A stretch of DNA of 64,000 nucleotides from Mycolicibacterium fluoranthenivorans. Lineage in GTDB: Bacteria; Actinomycetota; Actinomycetes; Mycobacteriales; Mycobacteriaceae. Location of the stretch: contig NZ_JAANOW010000001.1 in NCBI RefSeq assembly GCF_011758805.1, positions 1,488,001 to 1,552,000 of the forward strand. Reading direction: 5' to 3'. Numbering within the stretch: position 1 is the first letter of the stretch; each line of letters begins with the position of its first letter. Under the pieces are notes generated by a model, which saw only the letters and a program-made list of their open reading frames with translations, was not told the origin of the DNA and did not search any database. Shown piece after piece: positions 1-24,924 of this stretch. The translations under genes were made by a program, and so were the position numbers.

Positions 1-716
1 CGGGCGGTGCTGATGGCTTGGGCGACCATCCGTGCGGCACCCTTGCCCGAGTTGGCCTTTCCGGCGCGGAGCCGCATCCCGGCGATCACCGGAGCCGAGG
101 ACGCGGTGCTGATCGTGGTGGCGAGCGGGGACAGTCCCTTGCGCAGGATCTGCTTGCCGGCGATCTTGGTGTGCCCGTAGGAGGCGCCTTGTTTGGCGTG
201 GCCGTAGACCGGGCGCAGCAACGAGTCGATGTCGATGAACACCCGTTGTTCGGCGGCGTTGGGGAGCAGGTCGACCCGGCCGCACAACGCCACCAGGTGC
301 TCGCGCAGCACCGACTCCAACTGGCGGGCGTGACCGAAGGTGAACTCCCGCAGCAACGTTCCCACCGTCGACGGTGCGTACACGCCGTCGAAGAGCGACT
401 TCATCCCGCCGCTGCGCAGGATGTCGACGTCATCGATGCAGTCCGCACCGGCAACCATGCCTGCGACCACGGTGGCCAGCTTCGGTGCCGGGTTCGCCGA
501 CCCGGACTTTATCCGCGGCGCGCTGATGTGGACCTTCTCGCCGAGCAAGCGCGAAAGCCCGGTCTGCTCGGCCAACGTCATCACCGCAACCACACCGGCA
601 CACGACACGAGATTGCCATCGTCGAACACCGCTGAATCCGAGGCGAACCTATGCGAAACTTGCACCGGAAGTGCCTTTCCGAACTGGACCGATTGATGCG
701 TGAGAACACCAATCAT
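1..716 (-). CDS. IS1380-family transposase, N-terminal part (runs off the window)
   Basis: This is the first 238 or so codons of a DDE transposase of the IS1380 family, equivalent to the start of the 485-residue transposase at 19942-21399. The ATG lies at 714-716, 67 bases inside the terminal repeat, matching the start chosen in the complete copy. No stop or frameshift is visible in the part shown, so the protein may be intact beyond the window edge. It would catalyse cut-and-paste or replicative movement of the element. Confidence 0.9.
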   Translation of the reverse strand, partial: MIGVLTHQSVQFGKALPVQVSHRFASDSAVFDDGNLVSCAGVVAVMTLAEQTGLSRLLGEKVHISAPRIKSGSANPAPKLATVVAGMVAGADCIDDVDILRSGGMKSLFDGVYAPSTVGTLLREFTFGHARQLESVLREHLVALCGRVDLLPNAAEQRVFIDIDSLLRPVYGHAKQGASYGHTKIAGKQILRKGLSPLATTISTASSAPVIAGMRLRAGKANSGKGAARMVAQAISTA

Positions 717-783
717 CCCAGCCCAGAGGGCACTTTCCTCATTCCGACACCCCTATACAACCAGGTCAGTCGGTGGAACGAGG
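1..783 (-). mobile_element. IS1380-family insertion sequence, left copy, cut by the window start
   Basis: This stretch matches the complete element at 19875-21535 in reverse orientation. Wherever I compared the two they agreed base for base from the terminal repeat inwards. The outer end at 763-783 reads, on the minus strand, CCTCGTTCCACCGACTGACC, the same terminal inverted repeat as the other copy. The flank just outside (784-788) is CTTAG, i.e. CTAAG on the minus strand, close to the CTAAA duplicated around the other copy, which suggests a CTAA-like target preference. The rest of the element, including its other end, lies outside the window. Confidence 0.93.
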
Positions 784-814: not shown

Positions 815-2329
815 TCACCGGGCGCGTGGGAACCGTTCTGCCACATCCCGATACTCGGCGCGAATGGTGCGTTTGTCGAGTTTCCCGCTGGGCAGACGCG
901 GTAATGGCTCGTCCCGCAGCACCACATACCGCGGCACCTTGTAGTCGGACAGCAGCGCCTCGCAGTGCTGGATCACCACCGCTTCGTCACCGACCGTTCC
1001 GGTGATGATCGCGGCAGGCGTCTCGCCGAACCGTGCATCGGCAGCGGCGATGACCGCCACTTCGGCCACCCCGTCCAAGGTGGCGATGGCCGACTCCAAC
1101 TCGACGGGAGAGATGTTGATACCCCCGGAGATGATGAGGTCCTTCAGCCTGTCGACGAAGCTGATCCGGCCCGCTTCGTCGCAGGTGCCGAGGTCGCCGC
1201 TGTGCAACCATCCGTCGTGGATGGCGGCCGCGGTCTCCTCCGGTGCCTCCCAGTACCCGGGCGTCACGCCGGGGCCGCGGACCACCAATTCGCCCAATTC
1301 ACCCGGTCCCAGCAGCGCACCGTCGGTGCCCATCACCCGCACCTCGGTGAAGATGGATCCCATTCCGCAGGAGCCCGGATGCTCGAGTGCCTCGTGGGGC
1401 AGCGTCGCCGTGGCCACCCCGCCAGACTCCGTCATTCCGTAGATCTGGCGCAGCAGAACCCCTTTGGCCGCCCAGCGGCCCAACAGTTCGACGGGTACCG
1501 CTGCACCGCCGATGATCGCGGTCTGCAACGAACCCAGATCGGCTTCGGCGAATTCCGGAGCTTTCGACAGTGCCTCGAAGATCAGTGGAACACCGAAGAG
1601 GACACGCGCACGGTGCTGTTCGATGAGGTTAACCGCACGGGACGGGTTGAGTTCGGGTTCGACGATGAGGGTTCCGCCGAGAATGGTGGTGACCAGCACG
1701 CCGTAGACCAACCCCGGTGTGAAGGCCAGCGGCAGCACCAGGAGCGCGACCGTGCCCGGACTGAATCCGTCCTGGGTGAGCGTGTTCTCCAGTACGATGC
1801 CGAGCAGCGTTGCGCTGGTGAGGATCACGCCTTTCGACAGGCCGGTCGACCCGCTGGTGAAGATCACCGCGATGGGTTCTTCCGGTGCCCGATCGATCTT
1901 GAAATCGTCCGGGGCTCCATCCCGCTCGGCGTCCACGATGCCGAAGTCCAGAACAGCGAAGTCCCGACCACCGGCGCGGGCCTCTTCCGCTGTCGGCAGG
2001 TGTGCCGGGCTGGACACGATGAGACTCAGTCCGGAGTCATCGGCGATCTTGCGAATCTCGGCTGCTTTGAGCCGGGCGTTCAGCGGTACCAGCACCGCGC
2101 CGGACTTGACGATCGCCAGCGCCGCCACCGGCCACTCCAGCGAGTTCGAACCCAGCAGTCCGACCCGATCGCCGGGCTTGACGCCTTCGTCGGTGAGCCG
2201 CCGCGCCAGCCTGCTCGACCAGTCATGCAGCTCCCGGTACGTCAACCGGTCCTCTGCCACGATGAGAGCGGTGTGTTCGCCCTTGGTTCTGGCCCACCAG
2301 TTGAGGGCTGAACCGACCGTCGCTGCCAT
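815..2329 (-). CDS. acyl-CoA synthetase (AMP-binding, FadD-like)
   Basis: A 504-residue member of the ANL superfamily that should activate a carboxylic acid to its CoA thioester through an acyl-adenylate. The P-loop FTSGSTGLSKG is at about residues 157-167. YGMTES is near 298, HSGDLG near 377, the hinge motif ISGGINISPVE near 400, and the catalytic lysine region SGKLDKR near 482. The ATG is preceded by a strong GAGGAGA ribosome site. It is the last gene of a leftward run with the thiolase-like, DUF35, GNAT and Rieske genes, which suggests it activates a substrate or intermediate of that pathway. The substrate cannot be read from the sequence. Confidence 0.9.
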   Translation of the reverse strand: MAATVGSALNWWARTKGEHTALIVAEDRLTYRELHDWSSRLARRLTDEGVKPGDRVGLLGSNSLEWPVAALAIVKSGAVLVPLNARLKAAEIRKIADDSGLSLIVSSPAHLPTAEEARAGGRDFAVLDFGIVDAERDGAPDDFKIDRAPEEPIAVIFTSGSTGLSKGVILTSATLLGIVLENTLTQDGFSPGTVALLVLPLAFTPGLVYGVLVTTILGGTLIVEPELNPSRAVNLIEQHRARVLFGVPLIFEALSKAPEFAEADLGSLQTAIIGGAAVPVELLGRWAAKGVLLRQIYGMTESGGVATATLPHEALEHPGSCGMGSIFTEVRVMGTDGALLGPGELGELVVRGPGVTPGYWEAPEETAAAIHDGWLHSGDLGTCDEAGRISFVDRLKDLIISGGINISPVELESAIATLDGVAEVAVIAAADARFGETPAAIITGTVGDEAVVIQHCEALLSDYKVPRYVVLRDEPLPRLPSGKLDKRTIRAEYRDVAERFPRAR

Positions 2330-2357
2330 CTTTCTCCTCGCTCCAGGAATACCGGTG

Positions 2358-3524
2358 TCAGACCGTCGCCGGCGACCCGAACAATGTCGAACTGACCAAT
2401 GGTGCCATCGGACCGCCGATCAACAGGGAGACCTCAGCACCGTCCACCGGATTGGGAGAGCCGCCCCGAATCTGCCGCACGGCTTCGACCACGAGACCGA
2501 TGCCGTGGACGAACCCCTCCGCGATGTTGCCGCCTGCGGTGTTGATCGGGAGTCCGCCGGTGCCCACCGTGAGGTTCTCCAAGGTGAGGAAGTCACCCGC
2601 AGCCGGCCCGGCCGGACTCAATCCGTGGTCGATGATCGCGGCGACGGCCGGCCCGGTGAAGTTCTCGTAGACCTGCGCCACGTCGACTTCCTTCGGTCCG
2701 ATACCGGCACCCGACCACAGCCGCTGAACCAGCGCCGGATGAAAGCCCGCAGTGGTGTAGTTCTTCTCGTTCTCCACCGACTCGGTCCAGCCGGCGGCAG
2801 CACCTTGCACCCCGGACAGGATGTAGGCAGGCACCCCGAGGTAGTCGGCCGCGCGCTCGGCGCTGACCACCAGTACAGCAGCCGCGCCGTCGTTCTCCCT
2901 GGAACAGTCGAACAGATGCAGGGGTTCGGATATCCACCGACTGTTGTCGTAGCGCTCGTGATCGACGGTGTTCCCGTAGCCCACTGCTTCGGGATTGTTG
3001 CGCGCATGGTGGTAGCCGGCCAGTGAGACCGCCTCCAACGCCGACCGCGGCACCCCATCGACCTCGAGCAGCCGCTGGGTACGCAGGGCGCACACCTGGG
3101 CAGGCGCGAGCACGCCGTGCGCGGCATAGAGCGATCCGAGATGGCCTTTGGCGAAGGCACGACGGCCATCGGTGGTCTCGGACAGGCCCCGGTACACCGC
3201 GACGCACTCGGCCTGCCCGCTGTGCACTGCCGCCGCGGCACAGTTGATCGCCGCGGCGATACCGCCGCCTCCGCCACCCCACACCTCCGTGGACCACCGG
3301 ACCTCGTGAACCCCGAGCGCCGCGCCGATGGCCATGCCTTCGCTGGAATCCCCGCCGTAGGAGACGAATCCGTCCACGGTGCGGGGGTCGGCACCGGCAT
3401 CCTCGCAGGCGCGCAAAATGGCTTGGAGGACAAGCTGTGGTGAGGTGAGCGGGCTGGTCCCACGCTTGTAGTAACCGGTGCTGCCGACGCCGACCACGGC
3501 TGTGGATCCGCGGAACCCGCTCAC
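2358..3524 (-). CDS. thiolase-fold lipid-transfer protein (Ltp/SCP-x type), probable aldolase or thiolase
   Basis: A 388-residue thiolase-superfamily protein with the N-terminal GSTGYYKRG segment and the C-terminal GGNIAEGFVHGIGL segment of Ltp proteins. Where ordinary thiolases carry the nucleophilic cysteine loop, this protein has a run of six glycines at about residues 83-88. Cys-less Ltp proteins that pair with DUF35 partners act as retro-aldolases in steroid side-chain breakdown, which is established for Ltp2; applying it here is inference. The GTG start overlaps the stop of the DUF35 gene by four bases (GTGA), so the two are translationally coupled and likely form one complex. Confidence 0.85.
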   Translation of the reverse strand: MSGFRGSTAVVGVGSTGYYKRGTSPLTSPQLVLQAILRACEDAGADPRTVDGFVSYGGDSSEGMAIGAALGVHEVRWSTEVWGGGGGGIAAAINCAAAAVHSGQAECVAVYRGLSETTDGRRAFAKGHLGSLYAAHGVLAPAQVCALRTQRLLEVDGVPRSALEAVSLAGYHHARNNPEAVGYGNTVDHERYDNSRWISEPLHLFDCSRENDGAAAVLVVSAERAADYLGVPAYILSGVQGAAAGWTESVENEKNYTTAGFHPALVQRLWSGAGIGPKEVDVAQVYENFTGPAVAAIIDHGLSPAGPAAGDFLTLENLTVGTGGLPINTAGGNIAEGFVHGIGLVVEAVRQIRGGSPNPVDGAEVSLLIGGPMAPLVSSTLFGSPATV

Positions 3525-15914: not shown

Positions 15915-17783
15915 ATGTGTGGAATCGTCGGTTACGTCGGACGGCGCCCTGCCTGCGGGATCGTGGTCGACGCGTTGCGGCGGATGGAATACCGGGGCTA
16001 TGACTCCTCGGGTGTCGCCCTGCTCGACGGCGACGGCGGTCTGGTGGTGCGGCGCCGAGCCGGCCGGCTGGCCAATCTGGAGGAAGCCGTCGCCGAGACG
16101 GATGCGGCGCTGCTCGCCGGTACGACGGGGATGGGGCACACCCGGTGGGCCACTCATGGCCGGCCCACCGACCGCAATGCGCATCCGCACCGGGATGCCG
16201 ACGGCAAATTCGCCGTCGTGCACAACGGCATCATCGAGAACTTCGCGGCGCTGCGCACCGAGCTGGAAGCCGTCGGCGTCGAGTTCGCCAGCGACACCGA
16301 CTCCGAGGTGACCGTGCATCTGGTCGCCCACGCCTACCGCGAGGGCCCCACCGCCGGGGACTTCGTGGGCTCGGTGCTGTCGGTGCTGCGACGGCTCGAA
16401 GGGCATTTCACGCTGGTGTTCGCCAGCGCCGAAGAACCCGGCACCATCGTCGCGGCCCGCCGGTCCACCCCGCTGGTGGTCGGGGTGGGGGACGGCGAGA
16501 TGTTCGTCGGTTCCGATGTCGCCGCGTTCATCGAGCACACCCGCGACGCCGTCGAACTGGGGCAGGACCAGGCGGTCGTGATCACCGCTGACGGGTATCG
16601 GGTCACCGACTTCGCCGGCGAGGACCAGACCGCGAGTGCCCGCACGTTTCATATCGACTGGGACCTGAGCGCCGCCGAGAAGGGTGGCTACGACTACTTC
16701 ATGCTCAAGGAGATCGCCGAGCAGCCCGCCGCGGTCGCCGACACCCTGCTCGGTCATTTCGTCGACGGTCGCATCGTGCTCGACGAGCAGCGCCTGTCCG
16801 ATCAGGAACTGCGCGAGGTCGACAAGGTCTTCATCGTCGCCTGCGGTACTGCCTACCATTCCGGACTTCTGGCCAAGTACGCCATCGAACACTGGACCCG
16901 GCTGCCGGTCGAGGTCGAGCTCGCCAGCGAATTCCGGTACCGCGACCCGGTTCTGGACCGCAGCACGCTGGTGATCGCCATCTCGCAGTCGGGTGAGACG
17001 GCCGACACGCTCGAAGCGGTGCGGCACGCCAAGGAGCAGAAGGCCAAAGTGCTGGCCATCTGCAACACCAACGGCAGCCAGATCCCGCGCGAGGCCGACG
17101 CGGTGCTCTACACGCGTGCCGGTCCGGAGATCGGAGTGGCGTCCACCAAGACGTTCCTGGCGCAGGTGGCCGCGAATTATCTTGTCGGACTTGCCCTTGC
17201 GCAAGCACGGGGGACCAAGTACCCCGACGAGGTGGCCCGCGAGTACCACGATCTGGAGGCGATGGCCGATCAGGTCGCCCGAGTGTTGACCTGCATGGAA
17301 CCGGTGCGCGAGCTTGCCCGCCGGTTCGCGCGGTCGTCGGCGGTGCTGTTCCTCGGCCGGCACGTCGGTTACCCGGTGGCGCTGGAAGGTGCGCTCAAGC
17401 TCAAGGAGCTGGCGTACATGCACGCCGAAGGTTTTGCCGCCGGTGAACTCAAGCACGGACCCATCGCGCTGATCGAGGACGATCTGCCGGTGATCGTGGT
17501 GATGCCGTCGCCGAAGAACTCGGCCACCCTGCACGCCAAGCTGCTCAGCAATATCCGCGAGATCCAGGCCCGCGGCGCGGTGACCATCGTCATCGCCGAG
17601 GAGGGCGATGACACCGTGGCGCCGTATGCCGACCACCTGATCGAAATCCCGGCAGTGTCAACGCTTTACCAGCCGCTGCTGTCGACGATTCCGATGCAGG
17701 TGTTCGCGGCGGGGGTGGCGCAGGCGCGCGGCTACGACGTGGACAAGCCGCGCAACCTGGCCAAGTCGGTGACGGTCGAGTAG
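15915..17783 (+). CDS. glmS: glutamine-fructose-6-phosphate aminotransferase (isomerizing)
   Basis: A 622-residue glucosamine-6-phosphate synthase that makes the first committed precursor of peptidoglycan. The start is fixed by MCGIVGYVG, whose Cys2 becomes the N-terminal nucleophile of the glutaminase domain. Two SIS domains follow (ISQSGETADT near residue 358), and the protein ends with KPRNLAKSVTVE as in the family. Open frame extends upstream of 15915 but is not glmS. No glmS ribozyme or riboswitch was seen upstream. Confidence 0.97.
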   Translation: MCGIVGYVGRRPACGIVVDALRRMEYRGYDSSGVALLDGDGGLVVRRRAGRLANLEEAVAETDAALLAGTTGMGHTRWATHGRPTDRNAHPHRDADGKFAVVHNGIIENFAALRTELEAVGVEFASDTDSEVTVHLVAHAYREGPTAGDFVGSVLSVLRRLEGHFTLVFASAEEPGTIVAARRSTPLVVGVGDGEMFVGSDVAAFIEHTRDAVELGQDQAVVITADGYRVTDFAGEDQTASARTFHIDWDLSAAEKGGYDYFMLKEIAEQPAAVADTLLGHFVDGRIVLDEQRLSDQELREVDKVFIVACGTAYHSGLLAKYAIEHWTRLPVEVELASEFRYRDPVLDRSTLVIAISQSGETADTLEAVRHAKEQKAKVLAICNTNGSQIPREADAVLYTRAGPEIGVASTKTFLAQVAANYLVGLALAQARGTKYPDEVAREYHDLEAMADQVARVLTCMEPVRELARRFARSSAVLFLGRHVGYPVALEGALKLKELAYMHAEGFAAGELKHGPIALIEDDLPVIVVMPSPKNSATLHAKLLSNIREIQARGAVTIVIAEEGDDTVAPYADHLIEIPAVSTLYQPLLSTIPMQVFAAGVAQARGYDVDKPRNLAKSVTVE

Positions 17784-17796
17784 TAGCGGGCTGACG

Positions 17797-17931
17797 GTGG
17801 GTGAGGTCGGCCGCTGGCGCAGCGCCGCCGCCCGCGCTCACTTTCTCACCGTGTACGAGGCGGGCATGGCCGCGCTGCCGGTGGTGGGTGAATCCGTCGA
17901 CGTGCCGACGACGTTCGGTACGGCGGCCTAG
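17797..17931 (+). pseudogene. 5' fragment of a split alpha/beta-hydrolase gene
   Basis: From GTG at 17797 the frame reads GEVGRWRSAAARAHFLTVY, then EAGMAALPVVGESVDVP, then TTFGTA and a TAG at 17929-17931. This is the conserved N-terminus of an actinobacterial alpha/beta-hydrolase family that normally continues past the FGT segment. The missing C-terminal part of such a gene is found 5.9 kb downstream (23862-24143), after a foreign block. The fragment starts 13 bases after the glmS stop. Confidence 0.7.
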
Positions 17932-18095
17932 GTTTTTCGTCGCCGTCGAACTCGGCCGACCTCTCGGTGGTCGTGGATCGCCAAAGTGGACCCCTCGAAT
18001 TGTGTGAAGGTCAAATCACTTGTGCGCACACCAGTCTAATATCAGCACACGGATGTTCGGTTGCGGCCGAGCGGTACTGAGCCAAAGAAGCTTGA

Positions 18096-18659
18096 CTACG
18101 CCTGGTCGGTCTTGATGCCGTTGATCAAGTACCACAGGCCGCGTTCGAATGATTCTGGTGACCCGCCTTGTCCGCGTTTCGTCTGAATCATGACGGCGCC
18201 GAGTAGGTAGTTGAAGATGATGCTGATTCCGTCGATCGCCTGGTGTTCGTTGTAGCCGCCGCTGCGCAGAATGTTGAGGAGGCTCTCGCGAACTTCAGCA
18301 ACCCAGGAGCCTTTCAATTCCTGCGTGATCAGAACTTCGGCGATGCCAGGGCGGGTGACTAACGTCTGGCGAAGATCCTCAATGGCCTTGAAGAGCACTT
18401 CATCCCATGGTGCTTTCTCAGTGGTTCGAATTGATGGCACCGCGATGGTGTGGGCGACGAGTGCTTCGAGTAGTGCTTCCTTCGAGTCGAAATACCCATA
18501 CAACGTCATATGACTGACGCCGAGGTCGGCACTGACGCGACGAAACGTCACGGCCTCCAAGCCATCCGCGTCGAGGACGGCGAGCGCCGCAGTGATCACC
18601 TGCTCGACGTCCAGGAGTGCCCGACGCCCTGGACGTCCCCGCTGATTATCCGTCGTCAT
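18096..18659 (-). CDS. TetR-family transcriptional regulator
   Basis: A 187-residue regulator whose helix-turn-helix reads FRRVSADLGVSHMTLYGYF (about residues 38-56), with a C-terminal ligand domain. The ATG at 18659 is chosen because the protein then starts MTTDNQRGRPGRR like its relatives. It is divergent from the luciferase-like gene, and the shared 105-base region holds two abutting palindromes that are its likely operators. Confidence 0.88.
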   Translation of the reverse strand: MTTDNQRGRPGRRALLDVEQVITAALAVLDADGLEAVTFRRVSADLGVSHMTLYGYFDSKEALLEALVAHTIAVPSIRTTEKAPWDEVLFKAIEDLRQTLVTRPGIAEVLITQELKGSWVAEVRESLLNILRSGGYNEHQAIDGISIIFNYLLGAVMIQTKRGQGGSPESFERGLWYLINGIKTDQA

Positions 18660-18684
18660 GACAAACAGTAATAGAGCACGGGGG

Positions 18685-18725
18685 TTGACATCACAAAATT
18701 TTACCAAGTAAATTTACGGCGTAAA
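18685..18725 (+). promoter_or_regulatory. promoter with two abutting palindromic operators
   Basis: A -35 hexamer TTGACA lies at 18685-18690. Two 13-bp palindromes follow without a gap: TTTACCAAGTAAA (18700-18712) and TTTACGGCGTAAA (18713-18725), both of the form TTTAC-N3-GTAAA. The first covers the expected -10 position (about 18708-18714), so repressor binding would block transcription of the luciferase-like gene at 18765. The same sites can also autoregulate the divergent TetR gene. Confidence 0.75.
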
Positions 18726-18764
18726 TATTCGTCGCTCGTCGACTTCCCGACCGATGGTAGAAAC

Positions 18765-19847
18765 GTGAAACTTGGCTTCTTGCTGCCCACAATGCATTCG
18801 CTGGACGTCAACCGCATGGCGCTGGACGCCGCTGTGCGGCTAGGAGTGGACGACGTATGGGTACTTGACCACATGATGGGTCTGACACATCCCGCTGTAT
18901 GGCCGTTGTTCCCTGCCTCCCAAGCGCTTCCCGACCCCGACGCGCTGCTGGACCCTTTTTGCCTTGCTGCGGCGCTCGGACCTATCACCGATGTCCCTCT
19001 CGGTGTGTGCGTCACCGATGCCACGCGGCGCCGCGGCGGTGACCTCGCGCGCGCCTCGCTCACGCTGCACGACATCTGCAACGGCGGCTTCATTCTTGGC
19101 CTCGGCTCCGGCGAAGCCGAGTCGATCTTGCCGTTTGGATACGACTATGGGGCTCCCGTGGGCAATGTCGAATGTGCACTTCGCGAGTTGAGGTCGATGC
19201 TCGACCACGGTCAGATGCCCGATGGTGTCGGACGCACGGGGCTGTCCCGCGACGGCGCCAAGGGGGTCCCCCAGGTGTGGGTCGCCGCTCAACAACCACG
19301 CATGCTGCGGCTCACGGGTACCTACGCTGACGGCTGGTTGCCACTGCCCAGCAGTATCGAGTCGTACCGAGAACAACACAACGTCATCAAAACGGCCGCT
19401 GCGAAGGCAGGCCGTCCCGCTCCTGTTGCATCGCTGGTGCCCGCCACTATCTTTGGTGACTCCCGTGAGCACGTCATGCAGACTCTCGACCAGGTTCCGG
19501 TCGCGCGATTGATCGCCTATTATCTGCCTGCGGCGACATGGCGCAAGTACGGCTTGGACCATCCCGGCGGGCCCGACTGCCGCGGCCAGTCTGACATCAT
19601 CCCGCACGCTGTTGACGCCGAGCAGCTCATCGAGATCGCCCGCAAAATCCCGGTCGAACTGGTCGAGGAACTTGTATGGCTCGGTAATGCCGACGAAATC
19701 GCCGAGCGTATAGCACCATTCGCCGAAGCTGGCGCAACGCACCTGATGCTCGGCGACGTCACCGGAACGACCTATGCGCCTGAGGAATCAGCCAGGGTAC
19801 TCGGCGACCAGCTTCCACGACTAAAGACTCTGCTCGCCGAAATCTGA
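18765..19847 (+). CDS. LLM-class flavin/F420-dependent oxidoreductase
   Basis: A 360-residue luciferase-like TIM-barrel protein starting MKLGFLLPTMHSLDVNR, with GVCVTDATRRRGGDLAR (about 83-99) and GGFILGLGSGEAE (about 108-120). It is divergent from the TetR gene and controlled by the tandem palindromes. The gene ends 27 bases before the IS element, so any downstream partner has been separated from it by the insertion. The phosphotransferase and DUF7064-like genes beyond the element may once have been in the same transcript. Confidence 0.88.
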   Translation: MKLGFLLPTMHSLDVNRMALDAAVRLGVDDVWVLDHMMGLTHPAVWPLFPASQALPDPDALLDPFCLAAALGPITDVPLGVCVTDATRRRGGDLARASLTLHDICNGGFILGLGSGEAESILPFGYDYGAPVGNVECALRELRSMLDHGQMPDGVGRTGLSRDGAKGVPQVWVAAQQPRMLRLTGTYADGWLPLPSSIESYREQHNVIKTAAAKAGRPAPVASLVPATIFGDSREHVMQTLDQVPVARLIAYYLPAATWRKYGLDHPGGPDCRGQSDIIPHAVDAEQLIEIARKIPVELVEELVWLGNADEIAERIAPFAEAGATHLMLGDVTGTTYAPEESARVLGDQLPRLKTLLAEI

Positions 19848-19874
19848 CATTGACCACACGTGACGATGCCTAAA

Positions 19875-21535
19875 CCTCGTTCCACCGACTGACCTGGTTG
19901 TATAGGGGTGTCGGAATGAGGAAAGTGCCCTCTGGGCTGGGATGATTGGTGTTCTCACGCATCAATCGGTCCAGTTCGGAAAGGCACTTCCGGTGCAAGT
20001 TTCGCATAGGTTCGCCTCGGATTCAGCGGTGTTCGACGATGGCAATCTCGTGTCGTGTGCCGGTGTGGTTGCGGTGATGACGTTGGCCGAGCAGACCGGG
20101 CTTTCGCGCTTGCTCGGCGAGAAGGTCCACATCAGCGCGCCGCGGATAAAGTCCGGGTCGGCGAACCCGGCACCGAAGCTGGCCACCGTGGTCGCAGGCA
20201 TGGTTGCCGGTGCGGACTGCATCGATGACGTCGACATCCTGCGCAGCGGCGGGATGAAGTCGCTCTTCGACGGCGTGTACGCACCGTCGACGGTGGGAAC
20301 GTTGCTGCGGGAGTTCACCTTCGGTCACGCCCGCCAGTTGGAGTCGGTGCTGCGCGAGCACCTGGTGGCGTTGTGCGGCCGGGTCGACCTGCTCCCCAAC
20401 GCCGCCGAACAACGGGTGTTCATCGACATCGACTCGTTGCTGCGCCCGGTCTACGGCCACGCCAAACAAGGCGCCTCCTACGGGCACACCAAGATCGCCG
20501 GCAAGCAGATCCTGCGCAAGGGACTGTCCCCGCTCGCCACCACGATCAGCACCGCGTCCTCGGCTCCGGTGATCGCCGGGATGCGGCTCCGCGCCGGAAA
20601 GGCCAACTCGGGCAAGGGTGCCGCACGGATGGTCGCCCAAGCCATCAGCACCGCCCGCGCCGCCGGTGCCAGCGGGAAGATCCTGGTCCGCGGCGACTCG
20701 GCCTACGGCAACCGCAAGGTGGTCGCCGCGTGTGTCCGCGCAGGCGCCCAGTTCTCGCTGGTGATGACCCGCAACCCGGCCATCGACCGCGCGTTGGCCG
20801 CCATCGACGACGACGCGTGGACACCGGTGTCCTACCCCGGAGCGGTCCAAGATCCCGATACGGGGGCCTGGATCTCCGATGCCGAAGTCGCCGAAATCCC
20901 CTACACCGCATTCGCATCCACCCCCGATGCGATCACCGCCCGCCTGGTCGTGCGCCGCGTCAAAGACGCCCGCTACCCCGACGCGCTGTTCCCGGTGTGG
21001 CGGTATCACCCGTTCCTGACCAACACCGACCTGCCGGTCACCGAGGCCGACGTCACCCACCGCCAGCACGCGATCATCGAGACCGTGTTCGCCGATCTGA
21101 TCGACGGAGCGTTGGCGCACATCCCGTCGGGCCGGTTCGGCGCGAACTCCGCCTGGGTGCTGTGCGCGGCGATCGCCCACAACCTGCTGCGCGCCGCCGG
21201 AGTCCTCGCCGGAGAACGTCACGGCCGAGCGCGGGGATCGACGCTGCGCCGCCGCATCGTCAACGTGCCAGCCCGACTGGCCCGTCCACAGCGCCGACCA
21301 GCCCTGCACCTACCTAGCCGCTGGCCCTGGTCGAAGGCCTGGCTTGCCCTGTGGCGCAGCATCATCGGACACAGCCCACCACAACGCGCGATCCCCTGAT
21401 CAACTGCCAAACAGGCCCGACCGGAGCACACAGGAAAAGCTGGCCAGACCAGCGGGGCCACCTCATGCCCGCATCCCGAACATCGGCATCAACGAGAAAC
21501 GACTCCCGTCACCGAGGTCAGTCGGTGGATCGAGG
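19875..21535 (+). mobile_element. complete IS1380-family insertion sequence
   Basis: The element is 1661 bp, the usual size for IS1380. Its ends are CCTCGTTCCACCGACTGACC (left) and, read inward from the right, CCTCGATCCACCGACTGACC, differing at one base. The flanks carry a 5-bp direct repeat CTAAA (19870-19874 and 21536-21540), the expected target duplication. It encodes one transposase. A second, oppositely oriented copy lies at 1-783. Confidence 0.95.
19942..21399 (+). CDS. IS1380-family transposase
   Basis: A 485-residue DDE transposase occupying most of the element. The N-terminal part includes VVAGMVAGADCIDDVDILRSGG, and the C-terminal part includes AIIETVFADLIDGALAHIPS and an HNLLRAAG segment typical of the family. 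There is no frameshift or early stop, so the element may be active. The ATG 67 bases from the left end is used; a start slightly downstream cannot be ruled out. Confidence 0.92.
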   Translation: MIGVLTHQSVQFGKALPVQVSHRFASDSAVFDDGNLVSCAGVVAVMTLAEQTGLSRLLGEKVHISAPRIKSGSANPAPKLATVVAGMVAGADCIDDVDILRSGGMKSLFDGVYAPSTVGTLLREFTFGHARQLESVLREHLVALCGRVDLLPNAAEQRVFIDIDSLLRPVYGHAKQGASYGHTKIAGKQILRKGLSPLATTISTASSAPVIAGMRLRAGKANSGKGAARMVAQAISTARAAGASGKILVRGDSAYGNRKVVAACVRAGAQFSLVMTRNPAIDRALAAIDDDAWTPVSYPGAVQDPDTGAWISDAEVAEIPYTAFASTPDAITARLVVRRVKDARYPDALFPVWRYHPFLTNTDLPVTEADVTHRQHAIIETVFADLIDGALAHIPSGRFGANSAWVLCAAIAHNLLRAAGVLAGERHGRARGSTLRRRIVNVPARLARPQRRPALHLPSRWPWSKAWLALWRSIIGHSPPQRAIP

Positions 21536-21747
21536 CTAAAAAGCCGAACTCATGAACGGAGGTTCGCTCAGGCCGTCGACAACCTGCAGGACTACAACGC
21601 GCAATGCGGAGCCATCGCAGAGCCCGTCATTCCCGACGCGCCAGGCGCTAGCAACCCCAGCAGGCTACTTGCCAACTGCAACCCCAGCATCCACCCGAGT
21701 ACGCCGAGCTCCAAACACAAGCCCAACTGCGGAAACGAGGACACGCC
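21536..21747 (+). other. spacer after the IS element with a possible gene remnant
   Basis: The first five bases are the target duplication. One reading frame stays open through the spacer, contains ERRFAQAVDNLQDYNAQCGA, and ends in a TGA that overlaps the ATG of the next gene (ATGA at 21748-21751). Such overlap is typical of coupled genes, so this may be the 3' end of a gene that preceded the DUF7064-like gene. No start for it is visible, with or without the element. I do not recognise it. Confidence 0.3.
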
Positions 21748-22740
21748 ATGACCATTGACACCGAACGTGAGATCACTCCCGAGGATGACTCGTGGCGGTT
21801 CCACGAGCGGCCCGCGGACCCATTCTGGAATGAGTCAGGCCTATTCGGGTTCATGATCCCCGAGCGCAAGATCGACGGTTACTTCTACATCTGGCACCGT
21901 CCGAACATGAATCTCACGTCGGCGGGTGTCGCGTTGTGGGACGACAAGGGAATGGAATCGCACGATTGTCTGTATTCGGAGTGGTTTCATTTCAACCCCA
22001 TGTCTGCTGACACTGACATGTTCGACTTCAAACTCACCAATGGCATGAGCTGCAGGGTGATCGAGCCGCTGCGGCAGTACCGGCTGGGCTACACCAGTGA
22101 GACCTACTCTCTCGATCTCTTATGGACCGGCGCCTACCCGCCCCCGAATCTGCATTACTCCGGCGAGCACGGCTTCGACATCTATGGTGGCGTGCACTAC
22201 GAACAACTCGGCTCGGTAACCGGCAGCATCACACTGCATGGCGAAACAATTTCCGTTGATTGCCACCACTTTCGAGACCACTCCCGTGGGTTGCGGCCCG
22301 GTCCCGCCCATAACCTGCCCGGCGGTGGATTCGACTTCGCCTGGGCCTCGGAGGAGACTTCATTTGCGGTGACGTCGGCCCGCCCGGACCCCAAAGCGCC
22401 GGTCACCGCCCGATCCATCGACCGCATCAGCTACGGGCACATGACCAAAGATGGCCTCATGGCGCAGGTGGTCGACGGCACCAGGGAAGTGCTTGAACGT
22501 GAATCGGACGGCAGACCGCGCCGGGTCGTACTGCATCTGATCGACGAGCACGGACGCGAGATGCACGCACAATCGCAAGTAGTGAACTGCCTTAAGTGGC
22601 ACAGTATCTGGCATATGCAATGGTGCCTCGCGTATTGGGAAGTCGACTGCGAAAGCGGGTGGGGTGAAAACCAGGACTGGTTCGACATCGACGTGATCCG
22701 CGCCCACCAACGCCGGGCAATGGGCGCCGGGCAGCCGTAA
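21748..22740 (+). CDS. DUF7064/AttH-like protein of unknown function
   Basis: A 330-residue cytoplasmic-looking protein rich in Trp, Tyr and His, with no signal peptide or membrane helix. Segments such as GYFYIWHRPNMN, GHGFD-type turns (SGEHGFDIYGG) and CHHFRDHSRGLRPG resemble the beta-rich AttH/DUF7064 proteins found next to acyl-CoA and phosphotransferase genes in actinobacteria and sphingomonads; that family name is tentative. An ACGAGGA ribosome site precedes the ATG. The phosphotransferase gene follows 37 bases later in the same direction, so the two are probably one operon. Confidence 0.65.
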   Translation: MTIDTEREITPEDDSWRFHERPADPFWNESGLFGFMIPERKIDGYFYIWHRPNMNLTSAGVALWDDKGMESHDCLYSEWFHFNPMSADTDMFDFKLTNGMSCRVIEPLRQYRLGYTSETYSLDLLWTGAYPPPNLHYSGEHGFDIYGGVHYEQLGSVTGSITLHGETISVDCHHFRDHSRGLRPGPAHNLPGGGFDFAWASEETSFAVTSARPDPKAPVTARSIDRISYGHMTKDGLMAQVVDGTREVLERESDGRPRRVVLHLIDEHGREMHAQSQVVNCLKWHSIWHMQWCLAYWEVDCESGWGENQDWFDIDVIRAHQRRAMGAGQP

Positions 22741-22777
22741 CGAATCACGCCGACAACAGAACGGAGACGTGGTTTCA

Positions 22778-23839
22778 ATGTCGATATCCAACGCCGACGA
22801 CCTCACACCCGAATGGTTCACTCGTGTTCTCGGAAGTTCCGGGGCGATGGTCATCGACGTGCATCGCGAACAGCTCAGTAGCGGCGCGATGTGCGGCATG
22901 ACGCGCGCAGGGCTGACGTGGGACACGATTGGCCATGAACCCGCCTCAGTCATCGTGAAATACCCGACCGCAGACCCTGGCACCCGAGCCCTCGCCGAAG
23001 CGATGAGGATGTATGAACTCGAAGTCCAGTTCTACCGCGACCTGGCGCCCCACCTGGCCGGCGTGAGTATCCCCACCTGCTATTTCTCGGAGCTCAATCA
23101 CACCACCAGCGCCTTCACCCTCGTGTTGGAAGATCTCCGTGGAAAGACCCGCCCCGGAGACGTTCTCACCGAGAGCACCGCCGACGAATGCGCCGCGGTC
23201 CTTGACCAACTCGCACACCTGCAAGGGGCATCTTGGAACCTATCCGCTGCCGCAGCGATGCCGTGGCTCGCGGATCGCAACCGCACCTACACCGTCTTCG
23301 ACTCTATGCCCGCCGGACTACAGCCGTGGCTCGATCGATTCGGTCACGCGCTGGAGCCCGAACAGGTCGCCCTGTTCGAGACCGTCATTCCCCAGGCAGG
23401 CCGATGGATCAGATCGTGGAACGGACCTTCAGTGGTCCAGCATGGAGACCTACGCACCGACAACATCCTGTTCAGCCTCGACCCAGTTCCACGGGCTACG
23501 ATCGTGGACTTCCAAACCGTGCGCCTCGGCCCGCCCGGGATCGATCCCGCCTACTTCCTCGGCTCGTCACTGTCCACGCAGAACCGCCGCGCATACGAAC
23601 TAGACCTGCTCAAGGAGTTCCACCGCCACCTCGTTGCCGTCGGAGCCGCCGACTACGACTTCAACGCGTGCTTGCGCGACTACCGAGAGGGCGCCATCTA
23701 CGCTGTCTTCCTTTTCTGCGGCCTATCCAGCCAAATCCCACCATCAGAACGTTTCGATCGCGTCATCGCCGACCAGACCCGTCGATACGCAGATATGGCG
23801 CTCGACCTCAATTCCGCCAGACTAGCCAACCTCATGTGA
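22778..23839 (+). CDS. APH/ecdysteroid-kinase-like phosphotransferase
   Basis: A 353-residue small-molecule kinase. The catalytic loop VVQHGDLRTDNILF (about residues 222-235) contains His-x-Asp-x4-Asn, and IVDFQTV about ten residues later supplies the metal-binding Asp. The nucleotide lysine is probably in ASVIVKYP near residue 65. The ATG at 22778 is preferred over the GTG at 22769 because GGAGA lies ten bases before it. Such kinases phosphorylate hydroxyl groups of antibiotics, steroids or other lipophilic alcohols; the substrate here is unknown. The gene ends just before the right edge of the foreign block. Confidence 0.85.
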   Translation: MSISNADDLTPEWFTRVLGSSGAMVIDVHREQLSSGAMCGMTRAGLTWDTIGHEPASVIVKYPTADPGTRALAEAMRMYELEVQFYRDLAPHLAGVSIPTCYFSELNHTTSAFTLVLEDLRGKTRPGDVLTESTADECAAVLDQLAHLQGASWNLSAAAAMPWLADRNRTYTVFDSMPAGLQPWLDRFGHALEPEQVALFETVIPQAGRWIRSWNGPSVVQHGDLRTDNILFSLDPVPRATIVDFQTVRLGPPGIDPAYFLGSSLSTQNRRAYELDLLKEFHRHLVAVGAADYDFNACLRDYREGAIYAVFLFCGLSSQIPPSERFDRVIADQTRRYADMALDLNSARLANLM

Positions 23840-23861
23840 CATCGCAGAATCGGGGCCATGC

Positions 23862-24143
23862 CCTAGGGCTTGCCTCCTCGGCGGGCCGGATGTAGCGCTC
23901 CATCAGCCGACGCCCACCTTGTTCACCGACGCCCAGCTGCGTGCGCTGGACATGCCGGTGCTGGCATTGATCGCCGGCCGCAGCGTCATCCACGAAGGAC
24001 GACGGGCGGCCGACACCGCGCGGTCAGTGCTGCGGCACGGTCAGGTCGAACTCTGGGCGTCGGCGTCCCACGCCATCAGCGGAGAGTTCCCGGACGAGAT
24101 CGCCGCGCGGGCGCATCGGTTCTGGGACGGTGTCGACAGCTGA
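23862..24143 (+). pseudogene. 3' fragment of the split alpha/beta-hydrolase gene
   Basis: The frame reads GGPDVALHQPTPTLFTDAQL, then RALDMPVLALIAGRSVIHEG, and later VELWASASHAISGEFPDEIA before a TGA at 24141-24143. This is the C-terminal part of an alpha/beta-hydrolase, with the catalytic histidine in SHAISGEFP. It is in the same orientation as the N-terminal fragment at 17797. About 150 residues between the fragments are missing. It has no start of its own beyond a TTG at 23919, so it is unlikely to give a working enzyme. Confidence 0.72.
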
Positions 24144-24156
24144 GGCCGACGGGATG

Positions 24157-24924
24157 TCAGGTGCGAATGACGCTGGGCCCCAAGGCTTCATACCGGTGCG
24201 CCTCGGCCGTCGGCAGTTCTGATCCGGTGACGATGGATTCGAAATCCGACACCTCGGCGAACCGGCAGAAGCTGGTCTCCCCGAACTTCGTGTGGGCGGC
24301 CACGAGAATCCTGCGCCCGGCGACGTGTACGGCCGTCTGCTTGACCGCGGCCACGGCCGGGTCCGGTGTGGTGAGGCCGTGTTCCACGGTGATCCCGTTG
24401 GTGCCGAGATACGCCACGTCGATCACCAGTGTGCGCAGCCGCTCCACGGCCCAATGATCCACCGTCGCAAGAGTTCTGCCCCGCATCCGGCCGCCCAGCA
24501 GGAGTACCGTGACCGTGTCGCTGTGCGCGAGCGCCTCGGCGGCCAGCAGCGAGGAGGTCACCACGGTGAGCTCCCGGTCGGCGATCTTCTCGGCGATCAG
24601 GCGAGGTGTGAATCCCTCGTCCAGATAGACGGTTTCGGAGCCGTGCAGGAGTTCGACGGCCGCGGCGGCGATCCGGTGCTTCTGGGCGAGGTCGACCTGG
24701 CTGCGATACTCGACGGTGGATTCGAACGCGACGGTCTCCAGTGGCACCGCGCCGCCGTGCACCCGTTTGAGCAGCCGGCGCCCGGCGAGGACCTTGAGGT
24801 CGCGGCGGATGGTCTCGGACGCGACGTGGAGTTCCTCGGCCAGCGGCAGCACCTCTACCCGGCCCCGAGTACGGGCGAACTCGACGATGCGGCTCTGACG
24901 GGTCTCTGAATCCACGGCTGACAT
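24157..24924 (-). CDS. DeoR-family regulator of sugar/polyol uptake
   Basis: A 255-residue DeoR repressor. The N-terminal winged helix contains ELHVASETIRRDLKVLAGRR (about 30-49) followed by the family hallmark LLKRVHGGA, and the C-terminal DeoRC domain holds YLDEGFTPRLIAE and VDVAYLGTNG-type sugar-phosphate binding segments. It lies 52 bases after the PTS gene in the same direction, separated by a perfect palindrome. It probably represses the PTS and dehydrogenase genes until a phosphorylated sugar is present. Confidence 0.9.
   Translation of the reverse strand: MSAVDSETRQSRIVEFARTRGRVEVLPLAEELHVASETIRRDLKVLAGRRLLKRVHGGAVPLETVAFESTVEYRSQVDLAQKHRIAAAAVELLHGSETVYLDEGFTPRLIAEKIADRELTVVTSSLLAAEALAHSDTVTVLLLGGRMRGRTLATVDHWAVERLRTLVIDVAYLGTNGITVEHGLTTPDPAVAAVKQTAVHVAGRRILVAAHTKFGETSFCRFAEVSDFESIVTGSELPTAEAHRYEALGPSVIRT

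What the first reader, a model, noticed from the sequence alone, without database searches (positions are those of the whole stretch)
17797..24143. An alpha/beta-hydrolase gene split by a 5.9-kb foreign block
The N-terminus of a hydrolase lies just after glmS and a matching C-terminus lies 5.9 kb further, in the same orientation. Between them are five genes and an IS element. Both edges fall at the hexamer CCTAGG, and joining them does not restore an intact gene, so about 150 residues were lost. The event marks recent acquisition of the TetR/LLM/DUF7064-like/kinase genes and gives the exact insertion site in an otherwise conserved glmS neighbourhood.
Basis: partly seen in the sequence, partly recalled or inferred. 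Interest (0 to 1): 0.72.

Follow-up and report, generated by a model that had tools for sequence, protein, structure and literature searches.

The report
Foreign gene cassette replaced hydrolase middle
In this mycobacterium a small foreign gene cluster has replaced the middle of a hydrolase gene next to glmS; that kind of event is ordinary, but the cluster itself looks like a two-enzyme kit for removing alcohol groups using ATP.

Summary
The split gene is real. Intact one-gene versions follow glmS in 33 related genomes, chosen because they carry the gene. In four the order is glmS-hydrolase-deoR, as here without the block. About 150-166 codons, including the G-x-S-x-G motif, are gone. The remnants have not visibly drifted, so the event looks recent.

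The CCTAGG claim does not hold up. The left hexamer starts 4 bp past secure homology; the right one ends 20 bp before it. Two such short stretches share a 6-mer 24% of the time by chance. No target duplication or inverted ends were found. I read a deletion-replacement by illegitimate recombination, not transposition.

The IS1380 is a separate insertion with its own 5-bp duplication; it splits genes that lie 14-18 bp apart in three relatives.

The block is a TetR / LLM oxidoreductase / DUF7065 / EcKL-kinase cassette. The DUF7065 protein is closest by sequence profile to 25-phosphosteroid lyase, which also leads its fold matches, tied with an AttH protein. I propose that kinase plus DUF7065 dehydrate an alcohol by phosphorylation and phosphate elimination. 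That function is inferred, not shown.

The parts
15915..17783 (+). glmS, intact left neighbour
   Evidence: 100% self, 84-93% for the full-length same-genus best matches
17797..17931 (+). N-terminal remnant of an alpha/beta-hydrolase (homology secure to 17923; stop TAG at 17929)
17924..18095 (.). left filler between hydrolase remnant and TetR stop, about 56% GC, single copy in own genome, only short weak plasmid matches; holds CCTAGG 17927-17932
18096..18659 (-). TetR regulator (TetR_N, TetR_C_1); start at ATG 18659 chosen by comparison with relatives
18700..18725 (.). two adjacent operator-like repeats TTTACCAAGTAAA and TTTACGGCGTAAA in the TetR/LLM intergenic region; the second recurs as TTTACGGTGTAAA in 3 mycobacteria and Pseudonocardia
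18765..19847 (+). LLM-class (luciferase-like) oxidoreductase; F420 use inferred from its relatives, no curated F420 family cut-off reached
   Evidence: 80-81% identity in three mycobacteria
19875..21535 (+). IS1380-family insertion sequence, transposase 19942-21399, imperfect inverted ends (19875-19900 / 21510-21535), 5-bp duplication CTAAA on both sides; five identical copies in the genome plus one at 84%
21541..21747 (.). spacer between IS and DUF7065 gene, absent from the three IS-free relatives; origin unknown
21748..22740 (+). DUF7065 protein, predicted phospho-alcohol lyase, motif RDHSRGLR with D177
22778..23839 (+). EcKL/APH-family small-molecule kinase with HGDxRxDN and DFQT motifs; start ATG as in P0069
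23840..23886 (.). 47-bp right junction zone, not securely assignable to cassette or hydrolase; holds CCTAGG 23862-23867
23887..24143 (+). C-terminal remnant of the same hydrolase, frame open to its stop
24157..24924 (-). DeoR-family regulator, intact right neighbour; adjacent to the intact hydrolase in L071, L072, L074, L076

Best explanation
A horizontally acquired catabolic cassette (divergent TetR; LLM oxidoreductase; DUF7065 lyase-like protein; EcKL-type kinase) replaced an internal segment of about 450-500 bp of a dispensable alpha/beta-hydrolase gene between glmS and deoR. It arrived by illegitimate (non-site-specific) recombination: no terminal repeats, no target duplication, no recombinase of its own. 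Later, or just before, an IS1380 element inserted between the LLM and DUF7065 genes. Shown: one gene split in two, loss of its middle including the nucleophile motif, cassette present without the IS elsewhere, IS with its own duplication. Inferred: the recombination route. Inferred for function: the kinase phosphorylates an alcohol (probably a hindered or tertiary one on a steroid- or terpenoid-like compound) and the DUF7065 protein eliminates phosphate to give an alkene, as 25-hydroxysteroid kinase plus 25-phosphosteroid lyase do; the LLM enzyme acts before or after; TetR represses from the TTTACnnnGTAAA sites. The confidence below is for the replacement; for the enzyme function I give about 0.4.
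Confidence: 0.8

Rival explanations
1. The block is a transposon or other mobile unit that inserted at CCTAGG with a 6-bp target duplication (NCTAGN-type targets are known for IS481; recalled), and the hydrolase middle was lost separately.
For: CCTAGG occurs near both edges.
Against: None of the 25 inverted pairs shown (of 179) joins the two block edges; no recombinase among the block's proteins besides the nested IS1380; right hexamer not at the homology edge; 24% chance of a shared 6-mer; the 20 plasmid records listed of 131 match the IS only, and no phage record matches.
Confidence: 0.08
2. IS1380-mediated mobilisation (ISEcp1-like one-ended transposition, recalled) brought the block.
For: IS1380 is inside the block; the genome holds five identical copies.
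Against: The IS lies about 1.9 kb from the left edge and 2.3 kb from the right one, has a complete CTAAA duplication around itself, and the cassette exists without it in three genomes.
Confidence: 0.04
3. The replacement was made elsewhere and the whole glmS-block-deoR stretch came in by homologous recombination through the conserved flanks.
For: Needs no recombinase here; glmS and deoR are well conserved.
Against: glmS and deoR synonymous distances to four relatives (0.34-0.45 and 0.46-0.72) resemble those between L076 and the other three (0.32-0.45 and 0.66-0.82); no genome with the same junction was seen, which however scored only two candidate places per genome.
Confidence: 0.15
4. For the cassette: the kinase is a modifier of xenobiotics or drugs (APH family) and the DUF7065 protein has an unrelated role (hydratase, isomerase, pericyclase).
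For: APH Pfam match; the fold also hosts kievitone hydratase and pericyclases.
Against: Best Pfam match of the kinase is EcKL (1.1e-22) over APH (2.2e-15); the best PDB sequence matches of DUF7065 are 25-PSL entries; lyase-like genes recur beside phosphotransferases.
Confidence: 0.4

Closest known systems
25-hydroxysteroid kinase / 25-phosphosteroid lyase of Sterolibacterium denitrificans (PMC8449060, PMC11061730, passages read; PDB 9ft5, 9fsg, 9fzn, 9g2i, 9g4c by title only)
   Different: About 15% identity; kinase and lyase-like genes are adjacent here, whereas PMC8449060 reports no candidate lyase gene near 25-HSK; plus LLM enzyme and TetR; substrate unknown
Rv3167c-Rv3168-Rv3169 module of M. 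tuberculosis (PMC5340868, passages read; Rv3168 as APH-like kinase recalled)
   Same: TetR-family repressor divergent from an operon with a kinase-like and an Rv3169-family protein; a palindrome lies in the intergenic region
   Different: Rv3169 family score here 43.6 bits against a cut-off of 150; kinase first and partner second there, the reverse here; LLM gene added; the own genome holds two other genes above that cut-off (481 and 226 bits)
   Same: Same four genes, order and orientation, operator TTTACGGTGTAAA
   Different: No IS, no 207-bp spacer; glmS not matched in the 19 kb fetched around each
IS1380 family
   Same: Transposase above curated cut-off (324 against 180 bits), inverted ends, 5-bp duplication
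   Different: Nothing notable; duplicated target CTAAR at 3 of 3 copies examined

Membership tests
Split pseudogene of the glmS-linked alpha/beta-hydrolase | Both fragments align in order to one intact orthologue | tested here: met
Split pseudogene of the glmS-linked alpha/beta-hydrolase | Catalytic core lost | tested here: met
   G-V-S-x-G-G-W lies in the missing middle
Transposon (block as a unit) | Terminal inverted repeats at the block edges | tested here: not met
   179 inverted pairs, 25 longest shown, none of those joins the two edges
Transposon (block as a unit) | Target site duplication | tested here: not met
   about 450-500 bp of target lost; shared hexamer not at the right edge and expected by chance in 24%
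IS1380 insertion sequence | Transposase above curated cut-off, inverted ends, short duplication | tested here: met
Tn7-like insertion at glmS (features recalled) | Tns genes and insertion about 25 bp past glmS | tested here: not met
   no such family among the block's five proteins; left edge about 140 bp past the glmS stop
DUF7065 (PF23213) | Score above gathering cut-off 27 | tested here: met
   32.7 bits
Rv3169 family (NF053593) | Score above curated cut-off 150 | tested here: not met
   43.6 bits
25-phosphosteroid lyase | Same fold over the whole chain | tested here: met
25-phosphosteroid lyase | Conserved Asp of RDxSxGxR (role inferred from the Asn in 9g4c) | tested here: met
   D177 invariant in 51 sequences
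25-phosphosteroid lyase | Eliminates phosphate from a 25-phosphosteroid | not testable with these tools
   needs enzyme assay
EcKL (PF02958) | Score above gathering cut-off 22 | tested here: met
   81.1 bits
25-hydroxysteroid kinase | Sequence relationship to 25-HSK | tested here: inconclusive

The most novel reading that the evidence does not exclude
The block is a self-regulated, horizontally moving cassette for ATP-dependent dehydration of alcohols (kinase plus phospho-alcohol lyase, with an F420-type oxidoreductase), and DUF7064/DUF7065 proteins beside phosphotransferases, Rv3168-Rv3169 included, are a widespread actinobacterial version of the 25-HSK/25-PSL chemistry, in one case with a PPDK-type enzyme in place of the kinase.
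Probability: 0.35. Interest if true: 0.65.

Novelty: new variant of a known kind. Interest (0 to 1): 0.42.

Why it matters
The split gene alone is an ordinary case of gene replacement. The cargo is more useful: it gives a testable function to DUF7065 proteins and to their kinase partners. It also proposes a chemistry (phosphorylate, then eliminate) for a gene pair whose mycobacterial relative, Rv3168-Rv3169, is studied for its regulator; the passages that I read name no enzyme activity for it.

Tried and rejected
Rejected: CCTAGG as the insertion site; IS481-type or Tn7-like insertion (recalled features); IS1380 as carrier of the block. No sign of the cargo on plasmids or phages: the 20 plasmid records listed of 131 match the IS only (111 not listed), phages none.

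Inconclusive: the exact right edge. In a flush alignment of 23840-23897 against six relatives, random window segments scored at least as high in 4 of 1000 (L011), 53 (L013), 56 (L002), 91 (L020), 195 (L003) and 347 (L010) trials. The left filler has only short plasmid matches (34 bp at 91%, E 3e-3, in Rhodococcus, and one of E 4e-2 in Halorussus), which I discount. The 207-bp spacer has no plasmid match. The sixth DUF7064-type locus (L106) speaks against the pairing rule: a nitroreductase, an acyl-CoA ligase and an acyl-CoA dehydrogenase are near it, no phosphotransferase among the four frames scanned of six listed.

Limits and drops: one search scored only two candidate places per genome, so IS-rich genomes could hide a cassette; (DUF7065 protein, five candidates per genome at most) gave the same own plus three of 396. 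Two of 30 hydrolases (L080, L093), whose tblastn match stopped short, were left out of the DNA profile, so it has 28. A GC3 value for TetR was computed out of frame and is not used. Alignment A1 uses 50 of the 68 relatives; A2 uses 33 of the 120 listed of 234.

Papers: listings only (DUF7064, DUF7065) gave 0 papers each; 'phosphosteroid lyase' gave 2. Passages read in PMC5340868, PMC8449060 and PMC11061730. Most subscription papers are not in that library, so absence there shows little.
Full report
What was checked. The window lies in a 6.41-Mb genome (G000, contig C1), by its named relatives a mycobacterium. glmS runs 15915-17783 and is followed by an open frame 17797-17931; an in-frame remnant ends at 24143. 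Neither remnant scores in Pfam by itself. In six relatives one intact protein of about 290 residues follows glmS and aligns to both remnants. Searching 396 genus genomes with one of these proteins gave 129 with a match at E <= 1e-20. The 30 best loci all have it after glmS, 28 within 70 bp and two at 247 and 655 bp, with no stop inside the match. Four of the 30 (L071, L072, L074, L076) also have deoR next, at 92-94% identity to the window's DeoR. With three genomes seen only that makes 33. Three intact versions tested score as Abhydrolase.

How much is lost and where. A DNA profile of 28 intact hydrolases matches the window to 17923 and again from 23887, with looser envelopes to 17944 and from 23865; model positions 119 to 616 are missing, about 166 codons, with the G-x-S-x-G motif among them. 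phmmer extends the right-hand match in frame to 23835 (query residues 193-294), which would make the loss about 149 codons and would put the right CCTAGG inside the hydrolase. Direct comparison with six relatives is mixed. The 47 bp 23840-23886 therefore stay unassigned. Either way the hexamer is not shown to be the right edge. Two stretches of 21 and 47 bp from this window share a 6-mer in 24% of 20,000 draws, so the shared CCTAGG needs no explanation.

Age. The C remnant keeps an open frame; its dN to four relatives is 0.11-0.12, against 0.12-0.13 between L076 and the other three, and its dN/dS (0.09-0.21) is only somewhat above the 0.11-0.13 of those intact pairs. The event is recent on that scale. 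The gene seems dispensable in the genus: 267 of 396 genomes have no match at E <= 1e-20, and three good matches carry an internal stop (G157, G256, G364).

The block. Four cargo genes: TetR (start placed at ATG 18659 by comparison with relatives), an LLM-class oxidoreductase, a DUF7065 protein and an EcKL/APH kinase. The LLM protein reaches no curated F420-family cut-off, so F420 use is inferred from its relatives. Among 396 genus genomes three others (G069, G388, G156) hold a DUF7065 protein of 85-86% identity, the next being at 41% or less, and these three hold the same four genes in the same order at 73-75% DNA identity, without the IS. Pseudonocardia spinosispora and a Patulibacter MAG hold TetR-DUF7065-kinase without an LLM gene between. 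The cargo genes are 58-63% GC against about 67% around them, and third positions are 70-75% GC in LLM, DUF7065 and kinase against 85-91% in five neighbours. The TetR-LLM intergenic region has TTTACCAAGTAAA and TTTACGGCGTAAA side by side; the latter recurs as TTTACGGTGTAAA in the three mycobacteria and in Pseudonocardia, while Patulibacter has only the shorter TTACTGCGTAA. The cassette thus seems to have come with its own control region.

The IS. It spans 19875-21535 with inverted ends and CTAAA on both sides; two other copies examined have CTAAG and its complement CTTAG. Five copies in the genome are identical over 1661 bp and a sixth is 84% identical. In the three relatives the LLM stop and the DUF7065 start are 14-18 bp apart, so here the IS and a 207-bp spacer of unknown origin break what was probably one transcript.

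Mechanism of arrival. No inverted ends, no duplication, no own recombinase, target DNA lost: I infer illegitimate recombination replacing part of the gene. Mycobacteria have non-homologous end joining (recalled), which could do this. The route itself is not shown.

Relation to known systems. Rv3167c is a TetR-type repressor of the divergent Rv3168-Rv3169 operon and binds a palindrome in the intergenic region (PMC5340868, passages). The window's cassette has the same logic, but its DUF7065 protein fails the Rv3169 family cut-off, so it is a relative in design and not a member.

Verdict. The split gene is real and ordinary; the hexamer claim falls; the cargo is worth a bench test.

Noticed in passing
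window 1-783: Another copy of the same IS1380 element starts before the window and ends in it (G000:C1:1487123-1488783, minus strand), flanked by CTTAG on both sides.
   Followed up: yes
21541-21747: A 207-bp spacer between the IS and the DUF7065 gene has no counterpart in the three IS-free relatives and no plasmid match; it may be the remnant of another gene.
   Followed up: partly
L103 3-2474 (minus) and 2024-3025 (minus): In the own genome a DUF7065/DUF7064 gene lies beside a PPDK_N-domain enzyme, whose matches (all below cut-off in NCBIfam) include PEP synthases and rifamycin phosphotransferases, instead of an APH kinase.
   Followed up: partly
rows G157, G256, G364: Orthologues of the glmS-linked hydrolase elsewhere in the genus carry a TGA inside the match, so the gene may have decayed more than once.
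   Followed up: no
P0035: A 192-aa protein on a 7359-base contig is 99% identical to part of the DUF7065 protein but looks frame-shifted towards both ends; perhaps another assembly of the same or a near strain.
   Followed up: partly
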